Shown piece by piece: positions 8,125 to 24,955 of a DNA stretch of 32,751 nt. The stretch's first letter is position 1, and every line of letters begins with the position of its first letter. The translations under genes were made by a program, and so were the position numbers. The notes under the pieces are model-generated. The model did not search any database, was not told the DNA's origin, and was given only the letters and a program-made list of their open reading frames with translations. Source of the stretch: Tannerella sp. (lineage in GTDB: Bacteria; Bacteroidota; Bacteroidia; Bacteroidales; Tannerellaceae); contig JAIROL010000050.1 of the NCBI GenBank assembly GCA_031257565.1, positions 1 through 32,751 on the forward strand, given 5' to 3'.

Positions 8125-8340
8125 ATGCTTGAAGTTTTAGTATTGAGTGCAATAATTCTTCTTATTTGCCTTATTTTGTTTAGTGTGAATGTTTTATTGA
8201 AAAAGAACGGTAAATTTCCCAATATGCATGTCGGGTCTAATCCCGCATTACGCAAAAAAGGAATTAAGTGCGCCCGGACTCAGGATTTCGAAGCAGGTAT
8301 TCAGAAGAATCTTTTCGAACGGATGCAAAAGGAAGCTTGA
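8125..8340 (+). CDS. Small single-span membrane protein, conserved hypothetical
   Basis: A 71-residue protein with one hydrophobic N-terminal segment (about residues 3-26, LEVLVLSAIILLICLILFSV) and a basic soluble tail containing KKNGKFPNMHVG and ALRKKGIKCARTQDFEA. I recall this K-x-G-x-F-P-x-x-H-V-G...LRKxGI-x-C-A pattern from small conserved Bacteroidota proteins with no assigned function. A single Cys sits in the tail. The gene is 28 bases upstream of the OmpH-like gene on the same strand and probably shares its promoter, so a link to envelope biogenesis is possible but is only context. It is short but has its own -7 box and a sensible composition, so I consider it real. Confidence 0.75.
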   Translation: MLEVLVLSAIILLICLILFSVNVLLKKNGKFPNMHVGSNPALRKKGIKCARTQDFEAGIQKNLFERMQKEA

Positions 8341-8368
8341 ATAGGAAGTAAATATTATAATATTGAAT

Positions 8369-8995
8369 ATGAAAGAAAAATTACATTATGCGATTGAAAC
8401 GGCGCTTTTTGTAGCCGTGGTTATTTTATTTATTCTTCAGTTTTCGGGGAATAAAAAGTTGTCGGATACGAATGCGGTTGTTTCGGGAGATGGAACAACA
8501 TCGGAAAATGTTATGCCCATAGCATATATTGATGTTGATTCCCTGATGTCAAATTATACGTATTCTATCGATTTGAACGAGCAAATGACTAAAAAGTTTG
8601 AAAATTCACGCGCTAATCTGACTGAGAAGACGCGTAAGTTACAGTCCGAAGTTGCCGATTTTCAACGTAAATATGAAACCAATTCATTTCTTTCGCGCGA
8701 AAGAGCCGAATCCGAATATCAACGGATTACGAAAAAACAAGAAGATTTGCAGAAGCTTGAAGTTCAGTTGTCTCAGGAGCTTACGGATGAACAGTTCCGT
8801 ATGAATGAAAATTTGCGCAAGACGATTATCACGCAATTGCGCGAGTTCAATAAAGGTAAAGGATACCAGCTTGTTTACGGAAAGATGAATGACAATATTC
8901 TTTATGCTGACGATGCTTATAATATAACGGCAGAGGTGATAGAGTATCTTAATCGGCAGTATGCTTCTTCTCCGGCGGCGAAACCAGGCGAGTAA
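8369..8995 (+). CDS. OmpH/Skp-like periplasmic chaperone family protein
   Basis: The track frame begins at a TTG at 8363; the ATG two codons later (8369, MKEKLHYAIE) is the more likely start. The 208-residue product has an uncleaved-looking N-terminal membrane segment (about 8-28, TALFVAVVILFILQF), a Ser/Thr/Gly linker, then IAYIDVDSLMSNY, the conserved first strand of OmpH/Skp proteins. A long charged helix (about 70-150) is the coiled-coil tentacle region, followed by GYQLVYGKMNDNILYADDAYNIT, the closing strand and ITAEVIEYLN helix of the family. Skp-like proteins hold unfolded outer-membrane proteins in the periplasm; this membrane-anchored version is common in Bacteroidota and its exact role is not established. 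A terminator follows within 30 bases. Confidence 0.87.
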   Translation: MKEKLHYAIETALFVAVVILFILQFSGNKKLSDTNAVVSGDGTTSENVMPIAYIDVDSLMSNYTYSIDLNEQMTKKFENSRANLTEKTRKLQSEVADFQRKYETNSFLSRERAESEYQRITKKQEDLQKLEVQLSQELTDEQFRMNENLRKTIITQLREFNKGKGYQLVYGKMNDNILYADDAYNITAEVIEYLNRQYASSPAAKPGE

Positions 8996-9022
8996 AGAAT
9001 CTATATAGGTTGATGAAAAATC

Positions 9023-9057
9023 CGAAACCTGATGTTTACACAGGTTTCGATTTTTTT
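9023..9057 (+). terminator. Rho-independent terminator after the OmpH-like gene
   Basis: CGAAACCTG pairs with CAGGTTTCG around a 9-base loop and is followed by ATTTTTTT. It begins 28 bases after the stop at 8995, a textbook arrangement, and separates this unit from the defence pair downstream. Confidence 0.9.
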
Positions 9058-9130
9058 GTTGATTTTGGATGAGGATAAAGATGTGGTGGAAAAGGAAATG
9101 GAGAAAACATGATAATTGAGATAAAAGTTG

Positions 9131-9138
9131 TACCTTTG
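9131..9138 (+). promoter_or_regulatory. -7 box TACCTTTG directly before the methyltransferase start
   Basis: TACCTTTG matches TAnnTTTG. It ends only four bases before the ATG at 9143, so the transcript would begin at or within a few bases of the start codon. The surrounding GTACCTTTGTACC is a short direct repeat of GTACC. No well-spaced -33 TTG is present (the nearest is about 12 bases upstream), which lowers confidence. Confidence 0.45.
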
Positions 9139-9142
9139 TACC

Positions 9143-12043
9143 ATGGTTAATAGATTGAAAGAATATGCCGAAAACTTGAGAGCGCTTGATTTTCAATTTA
9201 ATAATCAAGTCAATTCCTCTATTTACTTTGTTGATAAATTGAAAGATTATATTGCAGATACAAATATATCTCCCTATATTATCATTGCTTTGGATAAGGC
9301 AAAATCATTTGAAGCAGATGCGGTATATTTTCGTTTCTTTGATGATGAGCGTCCGCCAATGCCGCAATTGTATATTTACGATAATATAACCAAAAATAAA
9401 TCTGCCGATTATTATGCTCAAAAACATAAGGATATTTGGAGTAGCTGTGAAATTGCTTCTTTTCTTGTGATAGATGAAACTTCTGTCAAAATATTTGACA
9501 GCCGAAAACCTGTGAAAACAGAAAAAGATAAAATTACTATTACTTCGGAACCAATCAAAGAACTTAATTTGTCGAAAATTAATGATATTGCAAAAGAATT
9601 TAAAGCATATTCTTTTGATAACGGCAGTTTTTGGGAAAACAAAGAAATGAGAAATCATTTTTTAAATTCCCGAATCGCTTCCGAAAGGTTAATGAAAGGA
9701 TTAAAAGATATTCGGGTTATTTTACGAAAAAACAACACACTATCAAAAGATTTAATTGACCAGTTACTAATTGTATGTATTTTAATAAAATATTTGGAAG
9801 AAACGGGTATTGACAGAGAGACAGAACAAAATATTAATTTGGCGCATAAATTTTTTGAAGAAAAAACAGGATATGCGAAATTGGAAGATATAATACGCAA
9901 TAATAAACTGGTGCAGTTGTTATCAGCATTAGCAGAACATTTTAATGGAGGTATATTTAATATTGATGATAGATACATACAAGAGTTAAACAATAAAGAC
10001 ATTAGCGAATTAGCACAGTTTTTTGACGCGGGATATAAAAACAATTTATTTGGTTGGAAAGAATATTCGTTCGAGTATATTCCCGTTGAACTGATTAGTA
10101 ATTTCTACGAGGAATTAATTCCTAAAACAACAACCGAAGATGAAAAAACAGAAGAAAAAAGTAAAAAAGAAACAGGTGCGGTATATACTCCGAATTTTCT
10201 TGTCAATTTGTTAATAGATGAGTGTTTACCCTTGAATAAAAATAATTTGGATAAGGATATTAAGTTGCTTGACCCTGCTTGCGGATCAGGAATTTTCCTT
10301 GTTTCTGCATACAAACGGCTTGTGCAACGATGGCGTATAAAAAATCAATTAGCAAATCCGACTGCAGATAAATTAAAAGAAATTCTTAAAAACAACATTT
10401 TCGGAGTAGATGTTAATTCTAAATCTGTCAATCTTTCAGTTTTCAGTTTGCAATTAGCATTGTGTTCCATGCTGACGCCAAAACAAATATGGACAGAATT
10501 TCAATTTGATGATTTGCAGGAAAACAAAAATATTGTCCAAAAAGATTTTTTTGAATATTTGGTTGATAAGAATGTAACACACAATTTCGATTTAGTGATA
10601 GGCAATCCACCATTTAAACGCAATATATTGGACGGGAAAAGTTATGAATATTACGGGAATCTTTTAGAAGAAAACAGATACCCGATAAAATTCAAAAATC
10701 CACAAAAAGAATTTGCTTATTTGTTTTTGGAGAAATCAATGCACTTTCTTTCAAACAAACAAGGAAAATTATGTTTAATCCTTCCTTCGGGGCCCTTATT
10801 ATATTCGAAAGATTCTGTTAGCGTAAGAAAGTCATTATTTTCTACATACAATGTTTCCCAAATTATAGATTTCACTTTTTTGCGAAGAGTTTTATTTCCG
10901 GCGACAGTTGCTACTCTGGCTATTTTTGTGGATAATAATCAGCCAACAGAAAAACTGGTACGGCATATCACGGCAAAACGCACAAAACAAAGTAAAGAGC
11001 ATTATTATTTTGAATTTGACCATTATGATTTTCATAATCTTCCGAAGGATTTAGTTACAGATAAGATAAATGTATGGAAATGTAACTTAGCAGGTGGATT
11101 AATAGTTTGTGATATTATTGCGAAATTGAATAAAATCAAGCCAAAATTCAAAGATTTTTGGCTTTCAAACAATATTAGAACATATAATGATAACATAAAT
11201 AAAGAAGATGTATTTCCTGCATATAAAAAAGAAATTGAAAATAACTCTTTGTTCCCACAGGAAGTACTTATTCCAATGAAAAGTAAAACTTATTGGGGTA
11301 TCAGAAAAAAAATAACAAAAGGAGTTTTCCCAACGGAAATTGTAATGGATGATTTCAAAAAAAAGGATACTTTTGATGGAATAGGATTTTGTGGGTCGGC
11401 AGAAGATATAGAACAATTGAAAAAATATATCAAAAATTATTCGGAATGGATTTGTTTTTATATTGCAGCAACGAGTGGCAGACAAGGAGTTAGAAGTCCT
11501 TATGTTATGTGCTTGTCTGATATGGAAAAATTTCCATTTGTAGAAAATTTGAAAGATTATATTTCCTGTTCGGATAAAATAATAATTGAAGATATTGCCA
11601 AATATACGCTTGACGAATTTGGTAATGGAGAAAAGGCACAAATTAATACTTTAAAAGCAGACGAAAATACTTTAAAGGAGTTTTCGCAAATATATTCAGA
11701 ATCCTTAAATGTATTTTATCGTTCCGGCAACAAACGATATACATTGACAAATATAAAAGAAGGGGATGCTTATTTTGTTTGTGATATAGAATATACAGAT
11801 AAAAACATTTTCCCAATACCTTTCTCCGAAACAGAAGATAAAATTAACAGTTTGCTTTTTGATTGGAATCTTTCAGGAAGCAAAAAAATCAATAAAATTA
11901 TTTTTACTTACGGGAATGATGTTATACGCATTATCAAACCCAAACAATTGCGTTATTGGCTTAAAAGTAAGGCATTGAGAGACGCTGACGAAACTGTTGA
12001 TTTCATTCTAACCCATAACAATTATGCAGGAAATTCTAAATAA
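9143..12043 (+). CDS. N6-adenine DNA methyltransferase, Eco57I/type IIG-like, of a restriction-modification pair
   Basis: The track starts at a TTG at 9128; the ATG at 9143 (MVNRLKEYAE) is the better start, giving 966 residues. Order: an N-terminal domain (about 1-150) with ADAVYFR, LYIYDN and a segment about an ALWS-like turn (DIWSSCEIASFLVID); a helical domain (about 180-345); the methyltransferase core opened by GAVYTPNFLVNLL, with motif I DPACGSGIFL (about 377) and motif IV NPPF (about 488); then a C-terminal target-recognition region with SGRQGVRSPYV. NPPF plus DPACGSG defines a gamma-class adenine methyltransferase. The N-terminal domain resembles the front of Eco57I-like enzymes but I see no clear PD-(D/E)XK triad in it, so cleavage is probably done by the overlapping next gene. 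The gene is much richer in A and T than its neighbours, suggesting transfer. Confidence 0.87.
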   Translation: MVNRLKEYAENLRALDFQFNNQVNSSIYFVDKLKDYIADTNISPYIIIALDKAKSFEADAVYFRFFDDERPPMPQLYIYDNITKNKSADYYAQKHKDIWSSCEIASFLVIDETSVKIFDSRKPVKTEKDKITITSEPIKELNLSKINDIAKEFKAYSFDNGSFWENKEMRNHFLNSRIASERLMKGLKDIRVILRKNNTLSKDLIDQLLIVCILIKYLEETGIDRETEQNINLAHKFFEEKTGYAKLEDIIRNNKLVQLLSALAEHFNGGIFNIDDRYIQELNNKDISELAQFFDAGYKNNLFGWKEYSFEYIPVELISNFYEELIPKTTTEDEKTEEKSKKETGAVYTPNFLVNLLIDECLPLNKNNLDKDIKLLDPACGSGIFLVSAYKRLVQRWRIKNQLANPTADKLKEILKNNIFGVDVNSKSVNLSVFSLQLALCSMLTPKQIWTEFQFDDLQENKNIVQKDFFEYLVDKNVTHNFDLVIGNPPFKRNILDGKSYEYYGNLLEENRYPIKFKNPQKEFAYLFLEKSMHFLSNKQGKLCLILPSGPLLYSKDSVSVRKSLFSTYNVSQIIDFTFLRRVLFPATVATLAIFVDNNQPTEKLVRHITAKRTKQSKEHYYFEFDHYDFHNLPKDLVTDKINVWKCNLAGGLIVCDIIAKLNKIKPKFKDFWLSNNIRTYNDNINKEDVFPAYKKEIENNSLFPQEVLIPMKSKTYWGIRKKITKGVFPTEIVMDDFKKKDTFDGIGFCGSAEDIEQLKKYIKNYSEWICFYIAATSGRQGVRSPYVMCLSDMEKFPFVENLKDYISCSDKIIIEDIAKYTLDEFGNGEKAQINTLKADENTLKEFSQIYSESLNVFYRSGNKRYTLTNIKEGDAYFVCDIEYTDKNIFPIPFSETEDKINSLLFDWNLSGSKKINKIIFTYGNDVIRIIKPKQLRYWLKSKALRDADETVDFILTHNNYAGNSK

Positions 12044-12731
12044 TACAGGTAATCCACCATCTTCGCTACCTATTTACGAACATTTATATAGCTTTATAGA
12101 TGACGTCTTGTGCAATTTTAAACCATTAAGTACAACCAGTACGGGTAATGTTGTTTCTTCAGAAGATGATATTACGCAAGACCTGGTCGCCTATTTCGAA
12201 GATCAGCAAGAGTTTTCGAATCACTCTGATTATTCATTCAAATTTGAAAACCAAAGTAAGCAGGGGGGAAATAAAACTGATATAGGGGTTAGATTAGGTA
12301 GAAGATATTCAAGTACCAATAGAAGTTTATTCTGTTGGATTGAAGCCAAACGTTTACCCACTCCCCCAGAAAAAGACAGGGACGAACGTGAATATGTATT
12401 TGTAAGTCGGAAAAAGGAAAACGAAAAAAGAATATTCAAAGGGAATGGCGGTATTCAGCGATTTAAGGAAGGTAAACATGCACCCAAACTTTCATATTCA
12501 ATTATGATTGGATACATACAGGAAAACGATGCTGACTATTGGCTGAATAAAATAAACGGTTGGATAAACGATCTGACAATTACCGATTCTATCCTGTGGA
12601 ATGAATCGGATTATCTACAAAAACAAAAAAAAACCAGACGCAATAGATATGTATCTACTCACAATCGGAGTAGAGGATTAATGCCGATAACTTTGCATCA
12701 TTTTTGGATAAATTTATTGACAAATCAATAA
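12024..12731 (+). CDS. Putative PD-(D/E)XK restriction endonuclease partner of the methyltransferase
   Basis: A 235-residue protein starting inside the end of the methyltransferase gene (20-base overlap, different frame), so translation is probably coupled. I do not recognise a named family, but a nuclease signature is visible: an acidic helix EDDITQDLVAYF (about 47-58), then KTDIGV with D86, then CWIEAKRL with E107 and K109, the D-(x)20-E-x-K arrangement of PD-(D/E)XK nucleases. After it come GNGGIQRFKEGKHAP (about 140-154) and IMIGYIQ...WLNKINGWINDL, which look like conserved blocks of the same family. Composition is as AT-rich as the upstream gene. The simplest reading is the restriction half of a restriction-modification system; a regulatory or phage-sensing nuclease is also possible. 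No toxin or antitoxin partner follows. Confidence 0.65.
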   Translation: MQEILNNTGNPPSSLPIYEHLYSFIDDVLCNFKPLSTTSTGNVVSSEDDITQDLVAYFEDQQEFSNHSDYSFKFENQSKQGGNKTDIGVRLGRRYSSTNRSLFCWIEAKRLPTPPEKDRDEREYVFVSRKKENEKRIFKGNGGIQRFKEGKHAPKLSYSIMIGYIQENDADYWLNKINGWINDLTITDSILWNESDYLQKQKKTRRNRYVSTHNRSRGLMPITLHHFWINLLTNQ

Positions 12732-12786
12732 ACATGATACCCTCGTAACTCCAATACTGTTCGCAAAATAGAAAGCAACAAATTAG

Positions 12787-12863
12787 CGGGATGCGGTCTA
12801 ATCCAAGCAGTTTGCCCGATTCTCCTACAGGGTACTTCTTGAACTGTTCCTGATTTTTTATTT
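12787..12863 (-). pseudogene. Short remnant of a DDE-type transposase gene
   Basis: Between the island and the AddB-like gene the minus strand reads IKNQEQFKKYPVGESGKLLG then LDRIP. This closely resembles the block (R)IKxPEQL-x-x-x-x-PGE-x-GKLLGLDRxPE from a family of DDE transposase-like proteins as I remember them. Similarity ends right after LDRIP, the position where relatives continue with E-V-x-T-L-R, and does not resume in the other two frames. The 79-codon frame in the track (12655-12894) therefore contains a fragment rather than a gene. It begins immediately after, and may slightly overlap, the stop of the AddB-like gene. Confidence 0.6.
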
Positions 12864-16037: not shown

Positions 16038-19000
16038 CTACGTTTTTGTGGCATTCGCTTCCCGATTCGCAGTTCTTTTCCCGATCACAGTTCTTCTCCT
16101 GAGCAGAAATAACGGAAGATAGAAGAAAATTCCGGCGAGCGACATGATCAGTCCGCCAATCGTACCGGCTGCAAGCGGAAACCAGAATGCCTCTTTGTCT
16201 AATCCGACCATGAACGGGATGAAGCCGAGTATAGTTGAGATGATGGTAAGGAATATCGGCACAATTTTTATATTCCATGCTTTTATATAGGCTTTTACCG
16301 GATTCATCAACGGTTTTCGCCGAAGGGTCCGGTTATATTCGTTTATCAGGTAGATGCTTGCATTTACCGTGACGCCGCATAACAATACGAACGCGGCGAA
16401 ACCGCCCTGGTCGAAATTTAGTTTGAACAGGTAAAATGTCAGGAACACTCCTATGTATGAGACCGGTATGACAAATATGATTGCAAGCGGCTGTTTGAGG
16501 GAGTTGAACAAGATGGAAGTCATGAAAAAGATGATCAGGATGATCAGGCCGAGAAAAAGATATTGTTTGTTGTCCTCCTTGCCCCACCAGTAGCCCCCGC
16601 TTTCGCTTTCTGCCGAGTATCCCAGAGGCAGGTCTTTGTTGAATTGTTCGAGCTCGAGGTCAAGAAATTTTTTTCCTTGTTGCGAAGAACCGATATATTC
16701 GTATTGCAGATAAAGCACATATTGCTGGTTTTCTTTTACGATATTTTGCGGCGTCTGCGTCTTTGTGATAGTCGCGAGTTCGCCTGTTTTATAATATTTC
16801 CCGTTCATGGAACGGCTCATATGCGTCAGGCTCCATAAATCATACAGAAAGCTTTGTTTGGACGATATTTTTATATACTCGATCTGCTCGTCGCCGTTTA
16901 CATATCCGCAGTTGATATCACGTCCGAATACGGGGCTTACCGATGCGTATAGTTCATACGGACGTATGTTTTCGGCTACCATGCGTTGCCGGTCGAGCCT
17001 GAATACATATTCGAGGTAATCCTCTTTATACCAGGAATACTGCGAATTGATATGCACTTCCTTGATGCGGCGGTAGGTAGTAAGTAAACGTTTGCAGAGC
17101 GAGTCGGCGTGAACATACAGGTCGTCATAGTTGTATCCGTATACTTTCACGCGCATGCTTCCCGCATATTCGTAAACATTGTTGCTGAACCCTTGATCCT
17201 GCAGCCCGTATACATCCCAGCTTCCGCCTCCCAGCTGCAACGCTTTCGATATGACGTTACTTTTAAGTTGGTAGGGGAAACCGCCTCTTTCGGCCTCTTT
17301 GGTAAATAACACCCGGATATTCGCGCGCCGTGAATTATAAATACTGGTCTGGAACTGGCGTATTTCCTTAAACCGGCTCAGGTAGCTTTCCATCTGCCGG
17401 ATAAGGCGGTTCATCTGTTGGATAGTCGTCCCGTTGGGCATTGATGCGGAGATCGTGAGTATAGTCTCGTCATTGCGCGTGAAATAGCTGCCGTTGTATA
17501 CTTTCTGTACGAACAGGCGGAGTGTGCCGCCGAGTGATTTTTCGATTGCCGGACGAATCTTTTCCTTGAAATTGGAGGATGATGCGATTTTATTGTAACG
17601 TTCGGCCCACTTACTTTTACCTTCGATTTTATCCGGAAGCATAAAGACCGGAATACCGAAAGCCAGTAGTAGTATGACGAGCGCTACGGACCGGAATCGA
17701 AACAGGAATTTGATGATCAGGAAATACGACTTGTCAAAATAGACGACGATTTTTTCAGGTGAAAAATGCAGTCGCCTGAACCGGAAGCGCGCGAGTTTCT
17801 TCCTGACGTTTATTTTTTCGATAGCTGCCGGAACGAGTAGTAACGAAACGGCGAGCGACACCATCAGATTTATTATTACTACAGCGGCAAAATCCTGCAG
17901 ATTCAACCGGATCTTTTCCTTCAGGAAGAAGATCATTGCCAGCGCCCCTACGGTTGTGAGTGTGGCGGCGAGTATGGACAGGAATACTTTCCGGTCGCGG
18001 TTACGCATATAGTGGTCGGCCATAATGATGGTATTGTCAATCACGAGGCTTAAAGATATGGTGATACCGGCGAGCGAATAGATCTGTATTTCCAGACCGA
18101 ACATGTAATAAAAAATAAAAGCGATGGAGATATTGAAGAACAGACTCAGTATGATAAGCAGCAGGTAGCGTACATTGAAAGTCGTCAGGAAAACGAAAAG
18201 GAGAAGGATGAATATCGTGAGGGTTGTCCGAAAATATATCTTATTCAGTTCATTATTAATATGCTCCGTGGCGTCATAATTGATATGCATTTCATATCCT
18301 TTCGGCAACAGTTGTCTGATTTGAGCCATTTCTTCTTTGACGGATTCGCTGAGGCGCAGTTGATTGGCGTCTTCGGTAGCGGTGAGCGACAGATAGATGG
18401 AGTTAAGTCCGTTTATCCGGTAATAGTTGGTCGGAGGTTCTTCACGATATGTCACCTTGACCAATTGATCGAGACATATCATGCGACCGTTTTTGTCTGC
18501 CAGAAATATATCTTCGGCGTGAAAACCTTTGCGTTTGTTAGCCGCTTCCGTAGATAGCGAGAGACGCATATAACGTTTATCCTGTTCGTTGCTCTCATAC
18601 ATCGCCATGGCAAGCGATTCTTTCCGGTTATATGATCCCACCGCCTCTCTGATATCATTGACGGTAATACCGAGTACATCCAACCGGCTGATATCATATT
18701 CAAGCAGCCACTCCATCGGCGTCGCTCCTGATACTTCTATTTTGTAGATGCCCGGAAGTTGTGCCAGCACAGGTTTTATATGCTCTTCTGCGTATTGTTG
18801 TATGATGATCGGCGAGACCATGGCGTCAATATTATACACGAGGAACGGGCGCGCCGATTCTTCATCAGGACGATTTATATAGATTGCAGGATATGAAGTG
18901 GAGGAGGGGAGGCTCGGCCATGTCTGGCGTATGATCGTTGAAGCCTCGAAGCGTACCATGTCCATCGACGCATGTTTGTCAAGCTCCAGCGTAATCCTTC

Positions 19001-19256
19001 CGTTATTATTGCCGGAGGTCGATTTGATATTCCTGACTCCGGCGATACGCGCCAGCATCGCTTCCAGTTTTGACGTGGCTTCCATCTCGACAATACGCGC
19101 CGAATGGCCCGGCATATTGAAGCTGACGGTGAGGCTGGGCAATGTGCGCGAAGGCGACAGCTTTACCGTAAGCGACGGTATGACGGCCAACCCAATCAGG
19201 GATATCGCCACAAATGCGACGACGACCGTGAATGCCGGTGTGCGGGACGTTTTCAA
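16038..19256 (-). CDS. RND efflux transporter permease (second permease of the operon)
   Basis: A 1072-residue inner-membrane pump of the AcrB/HAE-type RND superfamily. The layout is standard: TM1 at about 9-27, a large periplasmic loop, TM2-6 (about 345-480), a loop region with TM7 (about 525-545), a second periplasmic loop, and TM8-12 (about 880-1060). The TM4 motif SLVIDNTII has D407, the proton-relay acid, followed by Asn where AcrB has a second Asp; TM10 has GVTVNASIYLIN where AcrB has Lys. It starts 9 bases after the TolC-like gene stop and is the last gene of the operon, so it shares the adaptor and channel with the other permease. The two permeases are clearly different in sequence, not recent duplicates. 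Substrate unknown. Confidence 0.93.
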   Translation of the reverse strand: MKTSRTPAFTVVVAFVAISLIGLAVIPSLTVKLSPSRTLPSLTVSFNMPGHSARIVEMEATSKLEAMLARIAGVRNIKSTSGNNNGRITLELDKHASMDMVRFEASTIIRQTWPSLPSSTSYPAIYINRPDEESARPFLVYNIDAMVSPIIIQQYAEEHIKPVLAQLPGIYKIEVSGATPMEWLLEYDISRLDVLGITVNDIREAVGSYNRKESLAMAMYESNEQDKRYMRLSLSTEAANKRKGFHAEDIFLADKNGRMICLDQLVKVTYREEPPTNYYRINGLNSIYLSLTATEDANQLRLSESVKEEMAQIRQLLPKGYEMHINYDATEHINNELNKIYFRTTLTIFILLLFVFLTTFNVRYLLLIILSLFFNISIAFIFYYMFGLEIQIYSLAGITISLSLVIDNTIIMADHYMRNRDRKVFLSILAATLTTVGALAMIFFLKEKIRLNLQDFAAVVIINLMVSLAVSLLLVPAAIEKINVRKKLARFRFRRLHFSPEKIVVYFDKSYFLIIKFLFRFRSVALVILLLAFGIPVFMLPDKIEGKSKWAERYNKIASSSNFKEKIRPAIEKSLGGTLRLFVQKVYNGSYFTRNDETILTISASMPNGTTIQQMNRLIRQMESYLSRFKEIRQFQTSIYNSRRANIRVLFTKEAERGGFPYQLKSNVISKALQLGGGSWDVYGLQDQGFSNNVYEYAGSMRVKVYGYNYDDLYVHADSLCKRLLTTYRRIKEVHINSQYSWYKEDYLEYVFRLDRQRMVAENIRPYELYASVSPVFGRDINCGYVNGDEQIEYIKISSKQSFLYDLWSLTHMSRSMNGKYYKTGELATITKTQTPQNIVKENQQYVLYLQYEYIGSSQQGKKFLDLELEQFNKDLPLGYSAESESGGYWWGKEDNKQYLFLGLIILIIFFMTSILFNSLKQPLAIIFVIPVSYIGVFLTFYLFKLNFDQGGFAAFVLLCGVTVNASIYLINEYNRTLRRKPLMNPVKAYIKAWNIKIVPIFLTIISTILGFIPFMVGLDKEAFWFPLAAGTIGGLIMSLAGIFFYLPLFLLRRRTVIGKRTANREANATKT

Positions 19257-19265
19257 CTCTTCACT

Positions 19266-20768
19266 CTAATTCTTAATTATTAATTCCACCGTTTCGGATA
19301 TCGGCATATTGTATTCAAAATCGTATAATGTTAGTTTTCGTATTTTGAAATAGCTGACCCAGTAATTTTCGAGGGCGGAGATGTAATTACGTCTTGCTTC
19401 CTGCTGGCGTTGGCGGGAAAGCGTGAGCGTGTTGATGTCTGCTTTGCCGATTACAAACCGCCGGCGTGTACTGGCGTAAGCGTCGTCGGCTATCAGAAGC
19501 GCTTCTTCCGCAGATGCGATCAGATCTTTCTGGATATTGAAGTCGCCGACCGTCATGATCACGTCTTCTTCTACTTTTACCTCTCCCTGACGCGCCGTAA
19601 TCTCTGTTACATTGAGACTGTTTTTTGCCATGTTGTATTTTCCTTTCCGTACTCCCCAGTCTACAAGCGGGATGGATATGCTCAGCGAAACGATATCCTG
19701 GCGCAACGGATCGCGGTAGACTCCGGAGAGCGATCCTGCCACCTGATTATAACCGACGCTGGCCCATATTGAAGCATTGAACATCGATTCTTTTTTTGTT
19801 TTGTCTACATTCTGCCGACTTTCAAGAATATTCTGTTTGTATCCTAACAGGTCAGGGTTGTTATTTCGCGCTTCTGTCAATGCCTTGTCGGATGATATAT
19901 CCATTGATTTCGGATAACTCGGAAGCCTTAGGCGTATGGGCGTATTTTTGTCCATATTCAGGAATGAGTTAAGGGCGAACATGGCGCGTTTGAGGGAGAT
20001 ATCCGCATTTTTCAAAGAATTGACGGCATTGATGCGGTCCAACTTCAGCGTTAGCAGGTCCGACCGGCTGATTGCCGCGATCTTATAGCGTTCTTCGCCT
20101 ATGCGAAAGAGCGTATCCGTATTACGTACATTTTCGTCGGCGAGGTCGTATTCAGCCTGTGCCATTGCCAGATTAAAGAAATATCCGGCCGCTAATCCGG
20201 CGGTGTTTTCGAGATCGTAGACCAATTGTTTTTTTGCTTTTTCATATTTCAGCGGCTCGATTTTCTTTTCCCATTTGAATGCGTTATATCCCAGGAGGTC
20301 CTGGCTATAGCCGATACGTACAGGGATGGATGAGTATTGTGTTTCGGTATGATCGCCGAAGTTGCGCAGGTAATCGAGATTGGTATTGAGAAAAAACGAG
20401 CCTCCGAGCAGATCGAAGTTTTGTTTGACCGACAGTCCGCCGTATGCTTCAAAAGCCTGTTGTTGGCGGTATGTGTCGAGATTGGATTCCGAATCGTAGC
20501 GTTTGACGATGGTACGGTTATATTGTCCCGGCGTAAGGTTTAGCGTCAGGCTTGGCAGGCGTCCGGCTTTGAATGCACGGTATTCCCAGTAGCCCGACAT
20601 ATAAACGTTTTTTGAACGGAATGCCTCAAGCGAACTGTCGGCCGCCAGCGCAATCGTTTGTTCGAGCGTCAGGGTGATGGGCGCTTCCGTCAAAACCCTG
20701 TTTTGCCCAAATGACGGCGTCACAGCAAAAGAAAAGAAAAAGGCGATCGATAAATTTCTAAAAGACAT
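19266..20768 (-). CDS. TolC-family outer-membrane efflux channel
   Basis: A 500-residue outer-membrane factor with a Sec signal peptide (MSFRNLSIAFFFSFAVTPSFG, then Q at the cleavage end). The sequence shows the TolC plan of two repeats of helices and strands: TLEQTIALAADSSLEA near the start is the family's opening helix, and long amphipathic helices at about 170-260 and 400-475 form the periplasmic tunnel, for example a DLLTLKLDRINAVNSLKNAD segment and the later NTLTLSRQRQQEARRNYISA segment. It sits between the two permease genes, 12 bases after permease 1 and 9 bases before permease 2, so the operon encodes a complete tripartite pump. No lesions seen. Confidence 0.92.
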   Translation of the reverse strand: MSFRNLSIAFFFSFAVTPSFGQNRVLTEAPITLTLEQTIALAADSSLEAFRSKNVYMSGYWEYRAFKAGRLPSLTLNLTPGQYNRTIVKRYDSESNLDTYRQQQAFEAYGGLSVKQNFDLLGGSFFLNTNLDYLRNFGDHTETQYSSIPVRIGYSQDLLGYNAFKWEKKIEPLKYEKAKKQLVYDLENTAGLAAGYFFNLAMAQAEYDLADENVRNTDTLFRIGEERYKIAAISRSDLLTLKLDRINAVNSLKNADISLKRAMFALNSFLNMDKNTPIRLRLPSYPKSMDISSDKALTEARNNNPDLLGYKQNILESRQNVDKTKKESMFNASIWASVGYNQVAGSLSGVYRDPLRQDIVSLSISIPLVDWGVRKGKYNMAKNSLNVTEITARQGEVKVEEDVIMTVGDFNIQKDLIASAEEALLIADDAYASTRRRFVIGKADINTLTLSRQRQQEARRNYISALENYWVSYFKIRKLTLYDFEYNMPISETVELIIKN

Positions 20769-20780
20769 ATATTTATTCGT

Positions 20781-23700
20781 TTAATTGTTTAACGCTGTAC
20801 TTTTTTTTCTTCGAGCATAAATTTTCCAGTATACCAGCGGAATAAAGTAAAGACTGACCAGCGTACCGATAATCATTGAGGAAATCATGGCTATGGCGAG
20901 CGGTTTTTGGATTTCCGAACCCAAATCGTAGGAAAACATCATCGGAACCATAGCGATGATCGTAGTCAGCGACGTCATAATGATCGCCCGTAGACGGCGG
21001 CGTCCTGCGGTATGGATGGCTTCCATTACCGGAATGCCCTCTTTACGCAATTCGTTGATCATGTCGATCTTCAGTATCGAATCATTGATGATGATACCGC
21101 AGGTTACGACAATACCGATAGCGCTCATCAGATTCAGCGTATGGCCGAACAGCCACAGGCAGATCAGCGCAGCGCAAATGTCTATTGGTATTTCTATCAG
21201 AACGATCAACGGTTGCAGGAAACTTTCGAACTGTGCAGCAAGAATGAAATACATCAGCAAAATAGATATCAATAAAATGACTGTCAGTTCGCCGAGCATC
21301 TTTTTATTGGAGAAATAATTGCCTGAAAAACCGACGTCCCACGATTTCATGTCGTTTACTTCTTCTTTCGTTTTTTTCATCAGCCCTTCCGGATTTTTTA
21401 CTTTCTGATAGGAAATGGGAATATATTCGCCGTTCTTACCTGCTACGATGGTTTTCAGGCCTTCTGTGGGAACTACTGTTATAAAAAAACCGAGCGGTAT
21501 CTGCCGTTGTTCTCCTGCGGAACCTGCGTTTGTGCGGATAAGCGTTTTGCCGATCACTTCACTGATGGTTTGTTCTTCTCCTGCTATACTGATGGGAAGA
21601 TATTGCTGGTATGAACGTAGCGTGGCGATTTCGTTATCGCGGAATGCCGTTTTCAGCAACCGGCGAATCTCGTTATAATTCACATTGTATAGCAATAGCT
21701 TCTCGCGGTCTATGTAGATGCTTATCTCTTTGTCGAAGGAAACTCCTTCGGAATGTTCGCCGGCGAGTTTCTCCAGTTGTTGTTCTATTCTGCGGATCTC
21801 TGCCGCTTCAGGAGAGCTTTCCCTGTTGCGGGGATAAAGTTCCGTTATCAGGTCGGATTCGCCGGTAATGAATATTTTTTCGAATATCGTTTCCGGGGGA
21901 GCAAATGATATGATTGCAAGCGGATATGTCCTTTTTATCCATGCATCTATTTCCTCCTGCGCCTTTTCTGCCATTTGCGCGTTTTCCGCTTTGATATACA
22001 ATTCGCTTTCGGACGACGGCATTTTTTGATCATTGTCCAGTATAAACTGCTGGCGTCCGATGTAAGCGGAATGTTCAAGCGTTAACGGATCGATTTCACG
22101 GCAAAGAGCGCCGATACGTTTCCTGTTTTCGTCCAGATGGATATTTTCACCCCAGTCAATATGCGTCAATAGCTCCACCTGGTCGACAGCCGGCATACCC
22201 GATTTGGGAATGACGTCGAACATCAGTACGCAAAGAGGGAATGATGCAATGATCAGAACGGCGCAGACTGTTTTATGTGCGAAAGTAAAGTCAATCAACC
22301 GGTCATACCACCGGAAAAGCCTCCTGTTGCCGCGTTCCTGATAACGACGGACTTTATCGCCCAAGTCGCGTTTCGTAAAGTTTTTTGCATAGACCAGTTT
22401 GTACAGTACGGGTAAGAGCATGATTCCCGTGAAGTATGAAACCAGAAGTCCTACCGAAACAGAGAACGCTTCATCCACAAAGATAGCTCCGGCTATACCG
22501 CTGAGGAAGATAAGCGGCAGAAAGACGGCTATTGTTGTCAGCGTGGAACTTAGCATGGGCGTTATGACTTCTGTTGTTCCTTTTATACAGGCCTCTTCGA
22601 GCGACAGATTCCGTTCGCGATACTGGCTTATATTTTCAGTAATGATGATCGCGTTGTCGATCATCATGCCCAGCGCAAGGATAAGTCCGGATAAAGAGAT
22701 GATATTAAATGATTTATCAAAGAAGTAAAAAAACTGAAAGCACATGATCAGCGATACGATCATACTTATTCCGATGACCGCAGGCGATTTGGCGTCGCCC
22801 AGGAAAAGGAATGCGACAATGCAAATAAGTATAAAGCCGAGAATGAAATTTTCTTTGAGATTGGATATCGTATAGTCCAGCAATTCCGTCTGGTTGCGGT
22901 TTACCGTGAATTCGACGTCAGGGTAAAGACGCCGGAAATGATCAATGGTAGCGTTCAGCGATTTTTTCAGATTATCCATATTTTCGGCCGACTGTTTGAT
23001 GATGGCAAGCGTAACGGCGCGTTTACCGTTTACCATCGAGAAGCCGCGTTCTTCTTCCGGTATTACTTTCACCGAACAAAGATCTTTCAGTTGGTAGATA
23101 CGATCCGATTTGCGCAGGTAAATATTTTCAATATCTTCGGCCGTATGGAGCAGCGACAAAAATTTGACGTTGTATTCGTAGTATCCGTCGCGGATGATCA
23201 TGCTTCCGGCTTCGATATTGTTATCGTTTATAGCTGTTTCTATATCCGAAAGCGTGACGCCGGCGATTTCCAGCTTGTCCATGTCCGGCATGATACGTAC
23301 CTGGCTTGATACGATCCCTGTTGCGTCGACCATCGTCACTTCAGGTAACTGTTCGATACGGCGTTTGATCACGTTCTCGGCAAACTCGCTCATGGCAAGG
23401 AAGCGTTCGGTTCCCGTTGTTCCGTATTTCTCGTCGTCTTTCAGCGTCAGGTTGAGGTAAAATACCGGAATATCCGTCGCGCTGGCTTTGATGACGCGCG
23501 GTCGCTCTAAGTCGCGCGGCATGTAGTTCATCGCCGCATCTATTTTTTCATTTACCTCAATAAAGGCCAGTTCTATGTTTGTGCCGTAATCAAAACGCAG
23601 GTTTACCTGCGCGCTCCCATCGCGCGTTTCACTCCGGATATCCCGCAGTCTGGTTACCTGCATCAGTTGCCTGCGCAAAGCGGTCACTACCGTATTTTCC

Positions 23701-23870
23701 ACCTCGCGCGCCGAACTGTTGGGCATTGATACCTGAACGGTCATGTCCGGAATCGGAATATCCGGTAACAGCGATACCGGAAGGGTGAAATAAGTAATCA
23801 ATCCGATGATCACCATCGCCAGGAACGCCATCAATACGGCAATCGGCCGTTGTATCAAAAATTTAACCAT
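20781..23870 (-). CDS. RND efflux transporter permease (first permease of the operon)
   Basis: A 1029-residue RND pump, close in length to AcrB (1049). TM1 at about 10-28 is followed by LPVSLLPDIPIPDM and the first porter domain, TM2-6 (about 335-490), a second periplasmic part and TM8-12 (about 850-1015). TM4 carries GMMIDNAIIITENI with D405, keeping one of the two Asp residues of AcrB and replacing the other by Asn, a pattern common in Bacteroidota and heavy-metal-type pumps. TM10 has GIIINDSILKID in place of the AcrB Lys region. Its ATG overlaps the adaptor stop by one base (TAATG), indicating coupled translation. Together with the adaptor, TolC-like channel and second permease it should export lipophilic or toxic compounds; the substrate cannot be inferred. 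Confidence 0.94.
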   Translation of the reverse strand: MVKFLIQRPIAVLMAFLAMVIIGLITYFTLPVSLLPDIPIPDMTVQVSMPNSSAREVENTVVTALRRQLMQVTRLRDIRSETRDGSAQVNLRFDYGTNIELAFIEVNEKIDAAMNYMPRDLERPRVIKASATDIPVFYLNLTLKDDEKYGTTGTERFLAMSEFAENVIKRRIEQLPEVTMVDATGIVSSQVRIMPDMDKLEIAGVTLSDIETAINDNNIEAGSMIIRDGYYEYNVKFLSLLHTAEDIENIYLRKSDRIYQLKDLCSVKVIPEEERGFSMVNGKRAVTLAIIKQSAENMDNLKKSLNATIDHFRRLYPDVEFTVNRNQTELLDYTISNLKENFILGFILICIVAFLFLGDAKSPAVIGISMIVSLIMCFQFFYFFDKSFNIISLSGLILALGMMIDNAIIITENISQYRERNLSLEEACIKGTTEVITPMLSSTLTTIAVFLPLIFLSGIAGAIFVDEAFSVSVGLLVSYFTGIMLLPVLYKLVYAKNFTKRDLGDKVRRYQERGNRRLFRWYDRLIDFTFAHKTVCAVLIIASFPLCVLMFDVIPKSGMPAVDQVELLTHIDWGENIHLDENRKRIGALCREIDPLTLEHSAYIGRQQFILDNDQKMPSSESELYIKAENAQMAEKAQEEIDAWIKRTYPLAIISFAPPETIFEKIFITGESDLITELYPRNRESSPEAAEIRRIEQQLEKLAGEHSEGVSFDKEISIYIDREKLLLYNVNYNEIRRLLKTAFRDNEIATLRSYQQYLPISIAGEEQTISEVIGKTLIRTNAGSAGEQRQIPLGFFITVVPTEGLKTIVAGKNGEYIPISYQKVKNPEGLMKKTKEEVNDMKSWDVGFSGNYFSNKKMLGELTVILLISILLMYFILAAQFESFLQPLIVLIEIPIDICAALICLWLFGHTLNLMSAIGIVVTCGIIINDSILKIDMINELRKEGIPVMEAIHTAGRRRLRAIIMTSLTTIIAMVPMMFSYDLGSEIQKPLAIAMISSMIIGTLVSLYFIPLVYWKIYARRKKSTALNN

Positions 23871-24955
23871 TAATCCTCCATTAATTTGACTGTCGTTCCG
23901 TCCGCCAGATGCTCGTTGCCGTTTATGATAATTTCATCGCCTTCCTGAAGCGATTTGCTTGTGATGGTGTAATGCGTCGCATTTTCCAATCCCGTATCGA
24001 CATAATTCCATGCAGCTTTCCCGTCTTTATATGCGAATACGACCTGTTTACCCGTGCGCAGAACGACGGCGGTTTTCGGTACGACCCATTGTTTGCCTAA
24101 GGAACGGAATACGCTGATACGCACATTCATTCCGTTGAATATCTTGGCATGAGGTTGCACGTATGCTTTAACCCTTACGGTACCATCTTTATCCACGCTT
24201 GGGTTGATGCCTGCAATGCTGCCGGCAGATTCAATATCGGGCGACGCGTATGATTGGACTTTCACCTTATCTCCTGTTTTTATCAGCGGCATTTCATTTT
24301 CGAGAATCCTAAAGTCGACTTCCGGTTGTCCTTCGCTGATGATCGTGCAGAAAGGTTCCGATGCATCGATCGCGCAATAAGGTTTTGAAAAGAGATTGGC
24401 GACCGTACCGGCGATAGGCGTGCGGAGTGTCGCGTTATCGAGGTTATATTTCGCCAGATCGTATTGAATTTTGGCGTTATTATATCCGCTTCTGATATTG
24501 GCCAGCTTAAGGACGTCTTCCGGAATAGAAGCGGAATCGGCGAGCGAATGACCTTGTCCGATCAGCACATCCTGTAGTTCAAGATATGCTTTCTGCAGAT
24601 TATCCTCTGCCTGCAAATAGCCGTTCGACAACTGGAATGTGTCAAGCATGGCGATTGCGGTTCCCGCTGCTACGCGATCGCCGTTCTTAACAAATATTTT
24701 TACCGGAACGTTTCCTGCCGAGGTAGAGACAAACTGTAGTTCGGCTATCTGTTGCGCGCTGATTCGTCCGTTACTGACCAGTTCATGCTCGAAATCAATC
24801 GTACGCAACGTTTCGGTACGCACTTCCGCTTCTTCGGTCGGGAGCACAGTTTCCACCGATCCTTCTTTTTCGGCATTGTCGCTGTTGTTTTTTGGCCCGC
24901 AGCATGTCAGTCCCACTGTGATGAATATACCCGTAGCAAGTTTCCAGTTTATCAT
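23870..24955 (-). CDS. RND periplasmic adaptor (membrane fusion protein), lipoprotein
   Basis: A 361-residue adaptor of the AcrA/HlyD type. The N-terminus MINWKLATGIFITVGLTCCG is a lipoprotein signal with two adjacent Cys (18, 19), so it is probably lipid-anchored. FVSTSAGNVPVKIFVKNGDRV and the later ATLRTPIAGTVANLF are the two halves of the lipoyl (barrel-sandwich) domain, flanking a short helical hairpin (about 115-150). The beta-barrel follows (about 205-280, GDKVKVQSYASPD) and the membrane-proximal domain ends with QEGDEIIINGNEHL. It links the permeases to the TolC-like channel. It is the first gene of the four-gene unit, with a well-formed promoter 20 bases upstream. Confidence 0.93.
   Translation of the reverse strand: MINWKLATGIFITVGLTCCGPKNNSDNAEKEGSVETVLPTEEAEVRTETLRTIDFEHELVSNGRISAQQIAELQFVSTSAGNVPVKIFVKNGDRVAAGTAIAMLDTFQLSNGYLQAEDNLQKAYLELQDVLIGQGHSLADSASIPEDVLKLANIRSGYNNAKIQYDLAKYNLDNATLRTPIAGTVANLFSKPYCAIDASEPFCTIISEGQPEVDFRILENEMPLIKTGDKVKVQSYASPDIESAGSIAGINPSVDKDGTVRVKAYVQPHAKIFNGMNVRISVFRSLGKQWVVPKTAVVLRTGKQVVFAYKDGKAAWNYVDTGLENATHYTITSKSLQEGDEIIINGNEHLADGTTVKLMED

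What the first reader, a model, noticed from the sequence alone, without database searches (positions are those of the whole stretch)
9143..12731. AT-rich methyltransferase plus separate PD-(D/E)XK protein: a compact defence pair
Seen: a gamma-class adenine methyltransferase (DPACGSG, NPPF) overlaps a 235-residue protein with D86, E107 and K109 in nuclease-like spacing. The pair is bounded by a terminator on one side and a transposase remnant on the other and is far more AT-rich than neighbours. Known: Eco57I-like enzymes often carry cleavage in the same chain, whereas here it seems to be in a small partner of a family I do not recognise. Inference: a split restriction-modification or methylation-linked phage defence system.
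Basis: partly seen in the sequence, partly recalled or inferred. Interest (0 to 1): 0.62.

Follow-up and report, generated by a model that had tools for sequence, protein, structure and literature searches.

The report
Restriction enzyme with detached cutting subunit
Two overlapping genes encode a DNA-marking enzyme whose built-in cutter has lost its catalytic residues and a separate small protein that carries those residues instead; this pair is found, essentially unnamed, across many bacterial phyla, and it probably cuts foreign DNA that lacks the host's mark.

Summary
At 9143-12043 is a 966-aa gamma-class adenine methyltransferase. Overlapping it by 20 bp, at 12024-12731, is a 235-aa protein with D86, E107 and K109. 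No Pfam, NCBIfam, PADLOC, PHROG or PDB-sequence family covers the small protein. The pair is an AT-rich insertion that a sister species lacks.

The pair is a widespread, obligate two-gene system. A scan made only with the methyltransferase returned 80 loci from many phyla. The small gene lies downstream in 76, and the other four are contig ends. E47, D86, E107 and K109 are invariant in 93 of 93 homologues, and the AlphaFold model has the PD-(D/E)XK core order.

The methyltransferase keeps an N-terminal Type IIG-like nuclease domain without its catalytic residues. Relatives with an intact N-terminal D...ExK lack the small gene (0 of 9); those with a degenerate one have it (15 of 15). Natural swaps of the target-recognition region leave the small protein 67-87% identical, so it probably takes its specificity from the methyltransferase.

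Best reading: a split Type IIG-like restriction-modification system with a detached nuclease subunit. Activity and complex formation are untested. I rate it a new variant of a known kind.

The parts
9058..12863 (.). inserted block carrying the pair and a short IS-like remnant; about 89 bp in the sister species
   Evidence: Sister contig G429:C82 (L143) matches the window up to 9057 and again from 12864 with ~89 bp between; G+C 31.7%
9023..9057 (+). intrinsic terminator of the upstream OmpH/Skp-like gene; the insertion begins directly after its T tract
   Evidence: read directly; synteny with the sister ends at 9057
9131..9138 (+). TACCTTTG, a match to the Bacteroidota -7 promoter element TAnnTTTG, just before the start codon
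   Evidence: sequence reading; consensus from general knowledge; not tested
9143..12043 (+). gamma-class adenine methyltransferase, 966 aa, Type IIG-like architecture
   Evidence: Pfam/PADLOC/NCBIfam; model pLDDT 80, pTM 0.84; Foldseek hits CamA, BpuSI, BrxX, DrdV
9200..9517 (+). N-terminal PD-(D/E)XK-like domain (residues 20-125), catalytically degenerate: ADAVYFR...PQLYIYD in place of D...ExK
   Evidence: no conserved acid/Lys triad in 83 homologues; profile match to intact Type IIG R domains, score 36.2 vs shuffled maximum 16.6
10133..11002 (+). methyltransferase core (residues 331-620), DPACGSG and NPPF
11063..11722 (+). target-recognition region (residues ~641-860), swapped as a block between close relatives
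   Evidence: mostly 17-65% identity here between proteins mostly 70-100% identical on both sides
11723..12040 (+). conserved C-terminal segment with KPKQLRYWL-S-ALRDAD; its divergence tracks that of the small protein best
   Evidence: partial rank correlation 0.34, permutation sd 0.044
12024..12731 (+). small PD-(D/E)XK-type nuclease subunit, 235 aa
12162..12164 (+). codon of E47, invariant (start of the helix before the beta strands)
12279..12281 (+). codon of D86, invariant
12342..12350 (+). codons of E107-A108-K109, the ExK motif; E107 and K109 invariant
12737..12785 (-). short transposase/IS-like remnant at the downstream edge of the insertion
   Evidence: repeated at C96, C30 and C277 of the same genome; weak protein match

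Best explanation
This is a two-gene restriction-modification system that works like a Type IIG enzyme with its nuclease moved to a separate subunit. The large protein recognises a sequence through its C-terminal target-recognition region and methylates an adenine there, marking host DNA; its own N-terminal nuclease domain is kept as a fold but has no catalytic residues. The small protein (E47, D86, E107, K109) is the metal-dependent nuclease; it docks on the methyltransferase and cuts incoming DNA in which the site is unmodified, probably near the site and with SAM-dependent control. Shown: the genes, their obligate pairing, conservation of the nuclease signature, loss of the N-terminal signature, and independence of the small protein from the target-recognition region. 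Inferred: methylation, cleavage, docking, phage defence.
For: Obligate adjacency in one order in 76/76 testable loci found with the MTase alone. Same order in all eight annotated plasmid regions inspected. E47/D86/E107/K109/Y124 invariant in 93/93 homologues down to very distant ones. Model with PD-(D/E)XK core order, pTM 0.85. Profile match of the small protein to the catalytic half of Type IIG R domains, D86 on D and E107-A-K109 on E-A-K, score 30.4 vs shuffled maximum 19.0. N-terminal MTase domain homologous to R domains but lacking the triad. Dichotomy in Bacteroidota: degenerate N-domain and small gene 15/15; intact D...ExK and small gene 0/9. Target-recognition swaps: L014/L048 MTase core 88%, recognition region 35-43%, small protein 87%; L109/L064, L063/L068 and L040/L042 alike. 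Partial correlation of small-protein divergence with the recognition region 0.03 (sd 0.045) against 0.34 for the C-terminus and 0.23 for the core. XRE-type ORFs upstream in several Bacteroidota, a ~61-70-aa ORF upstream in alphaproteobacteria. Carriage on conjugative plasmids.
Against: No enzymatic, methylome or phage data. Foldseek found no significant structural neighbour for the small protein, and profile E-values are modest (about 6e-4). Enrichment near defence genes was not separable from a random-locus control. Only a handful of clear recognition-swap pairs, nearly all Bacteroidota. The docking site is unresolved: the C-terminus leads over all pairs, the helical region (166-330) in close pairs.
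Confidence: 0.7

Rival explanations
1. A conventional Type II system: the small protein is an autonomous restriction enzyme that recognises the same site by itself, and the large protein is only the protective methyltransferase.
For: Two separate overlapping genes, a small PD-(D/E)XK protein of ordinary Type II size, and upstream HTH-type ORFs reminiscent of controller genes.
Against: Block replacement of the MTase recognition region leaves the small protein 67-87% identical, and its divergence does not follow that region. An autonomous enzyme would have to change specificity in step. A solo small gene was seen only as a truncated relic (L017).
Confidence: 0.15
2. A methylation-linked defence that is not classical restriction: the nuclease is licensed by the methyltransferase, as in BREX- or MADS-like systems, or acts on modified phage DNA, or kills the infected cell.
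For: The MTase has weak similarity to BREX PglX and to the MADS methyltransferase; SIR2, TIR and AbiH genes lie beside some copies.
Against: No ATPase, phosphatase, protease or helicase accompanies the pair consistently; matches to PglX/MADS are far below their curated cut-offs (56.7 of 500 bits, 50.1 of 720).
Confidence: 0.1
3. The nuclease serves a housekeeping role with an epigenetic methyltransferase, for example a Vsr-like repair or nicking function.
For: A small endonuclease beside a DNA methyltransferase is also the layout of Vsr systems (general knowledge).
Against: Patchy distribution (10 of 396 Bacteroidota genomes), AT-rich insertion absent from the sister, plasmid carriage, and the complementarity with loss of the Type IIG nuclease triad.
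Confidence: 0.05

Closest known systems
Type IIG restriction-modification enzymes (Eco57I, BpuSI, MmeI, DrdV)
   Same: N-terminal PD-(D/E)XK-type domain, gamma-class adenine methyltransferase core and C-terminal recognition region in one order; recognition region changes while the rest stays
   Different: The N-terminal triad is gone and the presumed nuclease is a separate protein. [quoted passage not shown] the part of its Table 4 and text that I read showed no detached nuclease.
Type IIT / heterodimeric Type IIS enzymes with a small catalytic subunit (BtsI, PMC2909958)
   Same: A small catalytic subunit that depends on a large partner for recognition
   Different: There the large partner is itself a restriction subunit with its own cutting domain; here it is the methyltransferase
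Type I and Type III systems (HsdR/M/S; Mod/Res)
   Same: A nuclease subunit directed by the methyltransferase's recognition
   Different: No helicase/translocase subunit here; the nuclease subunit is about 235 aa
BREX PglX/BrxX methyltransferases
   Same: Same methyltransferase superfamily; Foldseek match
   Different: BREX needs several further proteins; none is present

Membership tests
Type IIG restriction-modification enzyme | gamma-class methyltransferase core with NPPY/F-type motif (here NPPF) and SAM motif | tested here: met
Type IIG restriction-modification enzyme | nuclease and methyltransferase activities in a single chain | tested here: not met
   N-terminal D...ExK absent in the window and 82 homologues; nuclease signature on a separate gene
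Type IIG restriction-modification enzyme | one recognition region serving both methylation and cleavage | tested here: inconclusive
   recognition-swap pattern supports it; biochemistry not done
Type IIG restriction-modification enzyme | cleavage stimulated by SAM | not testable with these tools
   needs purified protein
PD-(D/E)XK nuclease superfamily (small protein) | alpha-beta-beta-beta-alpha-beta core with D and (D/E)xK on adjacent strands | tested here: met
   model secondary structure H47-64 E72-80 E83-91 E104-111 H143-148 E158-165, D86 and E107/K109 on strands 2 and 3; invariance
PD-(D/E)XK nuclease superfamily (small protein) | significant structural or sequence match to a known member | tested here: inconclusive
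   no Foldseek hit at E<=0.001, no Pfam/PDB sequence hit; profile match to Type IIG R domains E=6e-4
Conventional Type II system with autonomous restriction enzyme | restriction enzyme has its own recognition, changing with the methyltransferase's | tested here: not met
BREX | PglX with the other core Brx proteins | tested here: not met
   PglX model score 56.7 against cut-off 500; flanking genes are OmpH-like and a PD-(D/E)XK-containing 1013-aa protein, none of them Brx
Type I restriction-modification | HsdR translocase and separate HsdS | tested here: not met
   no such genes beside the pair in the window

The most novel reading that the evidence does not exclude
A superfamily of split Type IIG-like systems, widespread in bacteria and also seen in an ANME-2 archaeal bin, in which a detached nuclease subunit docks on a methyltransferase whose own nuclease domain has become a scaffold, so that one recognition region sets both activities while cutting can be switched by subunit assembly. 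It is currently annotated as a lone N-6 DNA methylase or 'Type IIG' plus a hypothetical protein.
Probability: 0.55. Interest if true: 0.68.

Novelty: new variant of a known kind. Interest (0 to 1): 0.55.

Why it matters
If right, existing tools miscall this system: PADLOC matches only the large gene, as Type IIG, and the nuclease is called 'hypothetical protein' in every annotated record inspected. A detached nuclease would explain how a Type IIG-like host can methylate before it can cut, and naturally occurring recognition swaps with a nearly unchanged nuclease offer a ready set of enzymes of different specificity. It also gives a direct test of how recognition is shared between methylation and cleavage.

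Tried and rejected
(a) Foldseek of the small model against PDB and BFVD: no significant hit, so fold membership rests on topology, residues and profile match. (b) Defence-island enrichment: 120 immediate neighbours matched JetD, GajB, AbiEi, Cas5e, a DRT-associated helicase and others, but 120 genes from random Bacteroidota loci also matched R-M and other defence families; the tool lists only families, so no enrichment is claimed. (c) First profile comparison used two misplaced R-domain fragments; redone with a curated set and shuffled controls. (d) Prevotella Pin25611IV (regulator, MTase and an overlapping 'hypothetical' gene, PMC5608340) looked like a possible characterised member, but its genes are M of about 675 aa and S of about 467 aa, so it is a different system. 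(e) The small protein has no match in the phage collection. (f) Genome scans with alignment A3 and with the window MTase alone gave no loci; the scan with MTase alignment A4 succeeded. (h) The Fisher value printed used provisional counts; the final counts are 15/15 against 0/9 after dropping contig ends and unclear cases. (i) Literature searches found no description of a split Type IIG nuclease; REBASE itself could not be searched, and one search failed on its terms.
Full report
OBSERVATION. The methyltransferase ORF starts at ATG 9143 (the mechanical listing begins at an upstream TTG, 9128) and ends at 12043; the small ORF runs 12024-12731, overlapping by 20 bp. Pfam gives N6_Mtase (2.8e-19) and Eco57I (1.2e-18) for the large protein and nothing for the small one; PADLOC matches only the large protein, best as Type IIG, and NCBIfam gives only sub-threshold BREX/MADS matches to it. 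The small protein has no meaningful PDB sequence match, and 50 homologues gave no consistent Pfam, PADLOC, NCBIfam or PHROG family. The pair is 31.3% G+C against 43.6% elsewhere in the window, with GC3 of 25-30% against 47-55% in three other genes of the window.

THE PAIR IS AN INSERTION. In the same-genus genome G429 (contig C82, L143) the window's flanks match up to 9057 and from 12864 at 83-86% identity, with about 89 bp between them where the window holds 3,806 bp. The left edge follows the T tract of the OmpH gene's terminator (9023-9057). The right edge holds a short sequence repeated in three other contigs of the genome with one weak protein match (E=2.7e-4).

OBLIGATE CO-OCCURRENCE. 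A search of 396 Bacteroidota genomes with the small protein gave ten genomes. Apart from the window, eight of nine had it beside a homologous MTase, one of these degraded (G271/L019), and the ninth (G160/L017) is a truncated relic. The unbiased test used only the MTase alignment: 80 loci across Bacteroidota, Pseudomonadota, Planctomycetota, Acidobacteriota, Nitrospirota, Verrucomicrobiota, Spirochaetota, Cloacimonadota and an ANME-2 archaeal bin. The small gene is downstream on the same strand in 76, 73 of them within 320 bp of the MTase stop; in the other three the MTase frame appears broken, and in a few loci the small gene itself is fragmented. The four without it (L036, L055, L057, L106) end within about 200 bp of the MTase or inside it. 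On plasmids the small protein matches 20 records, mostly conjugative or mobilizable; in the eight annotated regions inspected the pair is 'N-6 DNA methylase' or 'SAM-dependent methyltransferase' plus 'hypothetical protein'.

THE SMALL PROTEIN. E47, D86, E107, K109 and Y124 are invariant in 93/93 aligned homologues, H226 in 92 with one gap. AlphaFold2 on 50 sequences gave pLDDT 84.9 and pTM 0.85, elements H47-64, E72-80, E83-91, E104-111, H143-148, E158-165: the PD-(D/E)XK order, with E47 opening the first core helix, D86 on the second strand and E107-x-K109 on the third. Foldseek found no significant neighbour in PDB or BFVD; weak, non-significant hits included the Type IIG enzyme DrdV and NucC. 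A profile comparison with the N-terminal nuclease domains of single-chain Type IIG-like relatives scored 30.4 against a maximum of 19.0 over 30 column-shuffled controls, placing D86 on their D and E107-A-K109 on their E-A-K. I take it as a PD-(D/E)XK-type nuclease with high but not complete confidence.

THE LARGE PROTEIN. Its model (pLDDT 80, pTM 0.84) matches CamA, BpuSI, BrxX and DrdV. Residues 44-119 model as alpha-beta-beta-alpha-beta-beta. The N-terminal profile matches the Type IIG nuclease domain (36.2 against a shuffled maximum of 16.6), best in the part after the catalytic strand, but where relatives have PDY...(V)EAKKP this family has ADAVYFR...PQ-x-YIYD with no conserved acid-lysine set in 83 proteins. 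It looks like a Type IIG enzyme whose built-in cutter is dead.

INTACT OR SPLIT. In the Bacteroidota sample, MTases without an N-terminal D...ExK had a downstream gene with the small protein's signature in 15 of 15 testable cases, including seven very distant ones with conserved D...E(C/A)K. Those with an intact D...ExK and enough downstream sequence had none in 9 of 9 (contig ends and unclear cases dropped, so the p-value printed, made on provisional counts, should not be used). Relatedness within each group makes the number of independent events smaller.

WHAT SETS SPECIFICITY. Residues ~641-860 of the MTase behave as an exchangeable block. In L014/L048 identity is 84-100% over residues 1-560, 71-72% over 561-640, falls to 17-38% over 681-840 and returns to 92% at 921-960, while the small proteins are 87% identical; L109/L064, L063/L068 and L040/L042 repeat this with small proteins 67-77% identical. 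Over 2,628 pairs the small protein's divergence has no partial rank correlation with the recognition region (0.03, permutation sd 0.045) but does with the C-terminal segment (0.34) and the core (0.23). An autonomous restriction enzyme would have to change with the recognition region. The simplest reading is that the small protein is guided by the MTase, as a Type IIG cleavage domain is. Where it docks is unresolved: over all pairs the C-terminus leads, in close pairs the helical region 166-330.

MECHANISM. Most likely the MTase binds its site, methylates an adenine in host DNA and, on unmodified DNA, positions the nuclease subunit to cut. Methylation, cleavage, SAM control, docking and phage defence are inferred. 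XRE-like ORFs upstream in several Bacteroidota and a conserved ~61-70-aa ORF (NFKV...FK.EFKGFA...MTDLLKEGF) in alphaproteobacteria could be controllers; the window itself has none.

COMPARISON WITH WHAT IS KNOWN. It works like a Type IIG enzyme, but single-chain nuclease activity, a defining feature, is not met, so I do not file it as a Type IIG member. The review of Type IIG organisations (PMC3874165) calls the R domain permanently N-terminal, and the portions read gave no detached nuclease. Pin25611IV (PMC5608340) was checked and is different. Heterodimeric Type IIS enzymes such as BtsI (PMC2909958, abstract) have a small catalytic subunit but a nuclease, not a methyltransferase, as partner. 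I found no description of this family in the papers searched, but REBASE was not searchable and preprints and most subscription papers were not held, so someone may already have named it.

LIMITS. Neighbouring genes include several defence genes, but random loci gave comparable matches, so enrichment is not claimed. Verdict: observation confirmed, interpretation supported; a new variant of a known kind.

Noticed in passing
window 9131-9138: TACCTTTG, a match to the Bacteroidota -7 element, ends 4 bases before the MTase start codon, which would make the transcript nearly leaderless if used.
   Followed up: no
L143 (G429:C82), corresponding to window 8330-9057: The sister species carries two tandem copies of the OmpH/Skp-like gene at this place, the window one.
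   Followed up: partly
alphaproteobacterial loci such as L030, L031, L096, L099, L107, L110 (and L083): A ~61-85-aa ORF directly upstream of the MTase with a conserved NFKV...FKKEFKGFA...MTDLLKEGF..SKKKR segment, resembling a ribbon-helix-helix regulator; a possible controller of the pair. Annotated ORFs of the same size lie at the same place in L199-L201.
   Followed up: partly
L178 and L194 (G272:C2): An intact-D...ExK Type IIG-like enzyme is followed 64 bp downstream by a 341-aa HNH-type protein instead of the small nuclease.
   Followed up: no
L017:9063-9413 (G160:C31): A truncated relic of the small nuclease without MTase, beside what looks like a broken transposase gene.
   Followed up: no
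whole genome G000: Several other N6_Mtase matches on eight other contigs, two with in-frame stops; this organism carries many methyltransferase genes.
   Followed up: no
window 16038-24955: Two AcrB-type transporters, an outer-membrane efflux protein and an HlyD-like fusion protein in a row: an ordinary efflux cluster.
   Followed up: no
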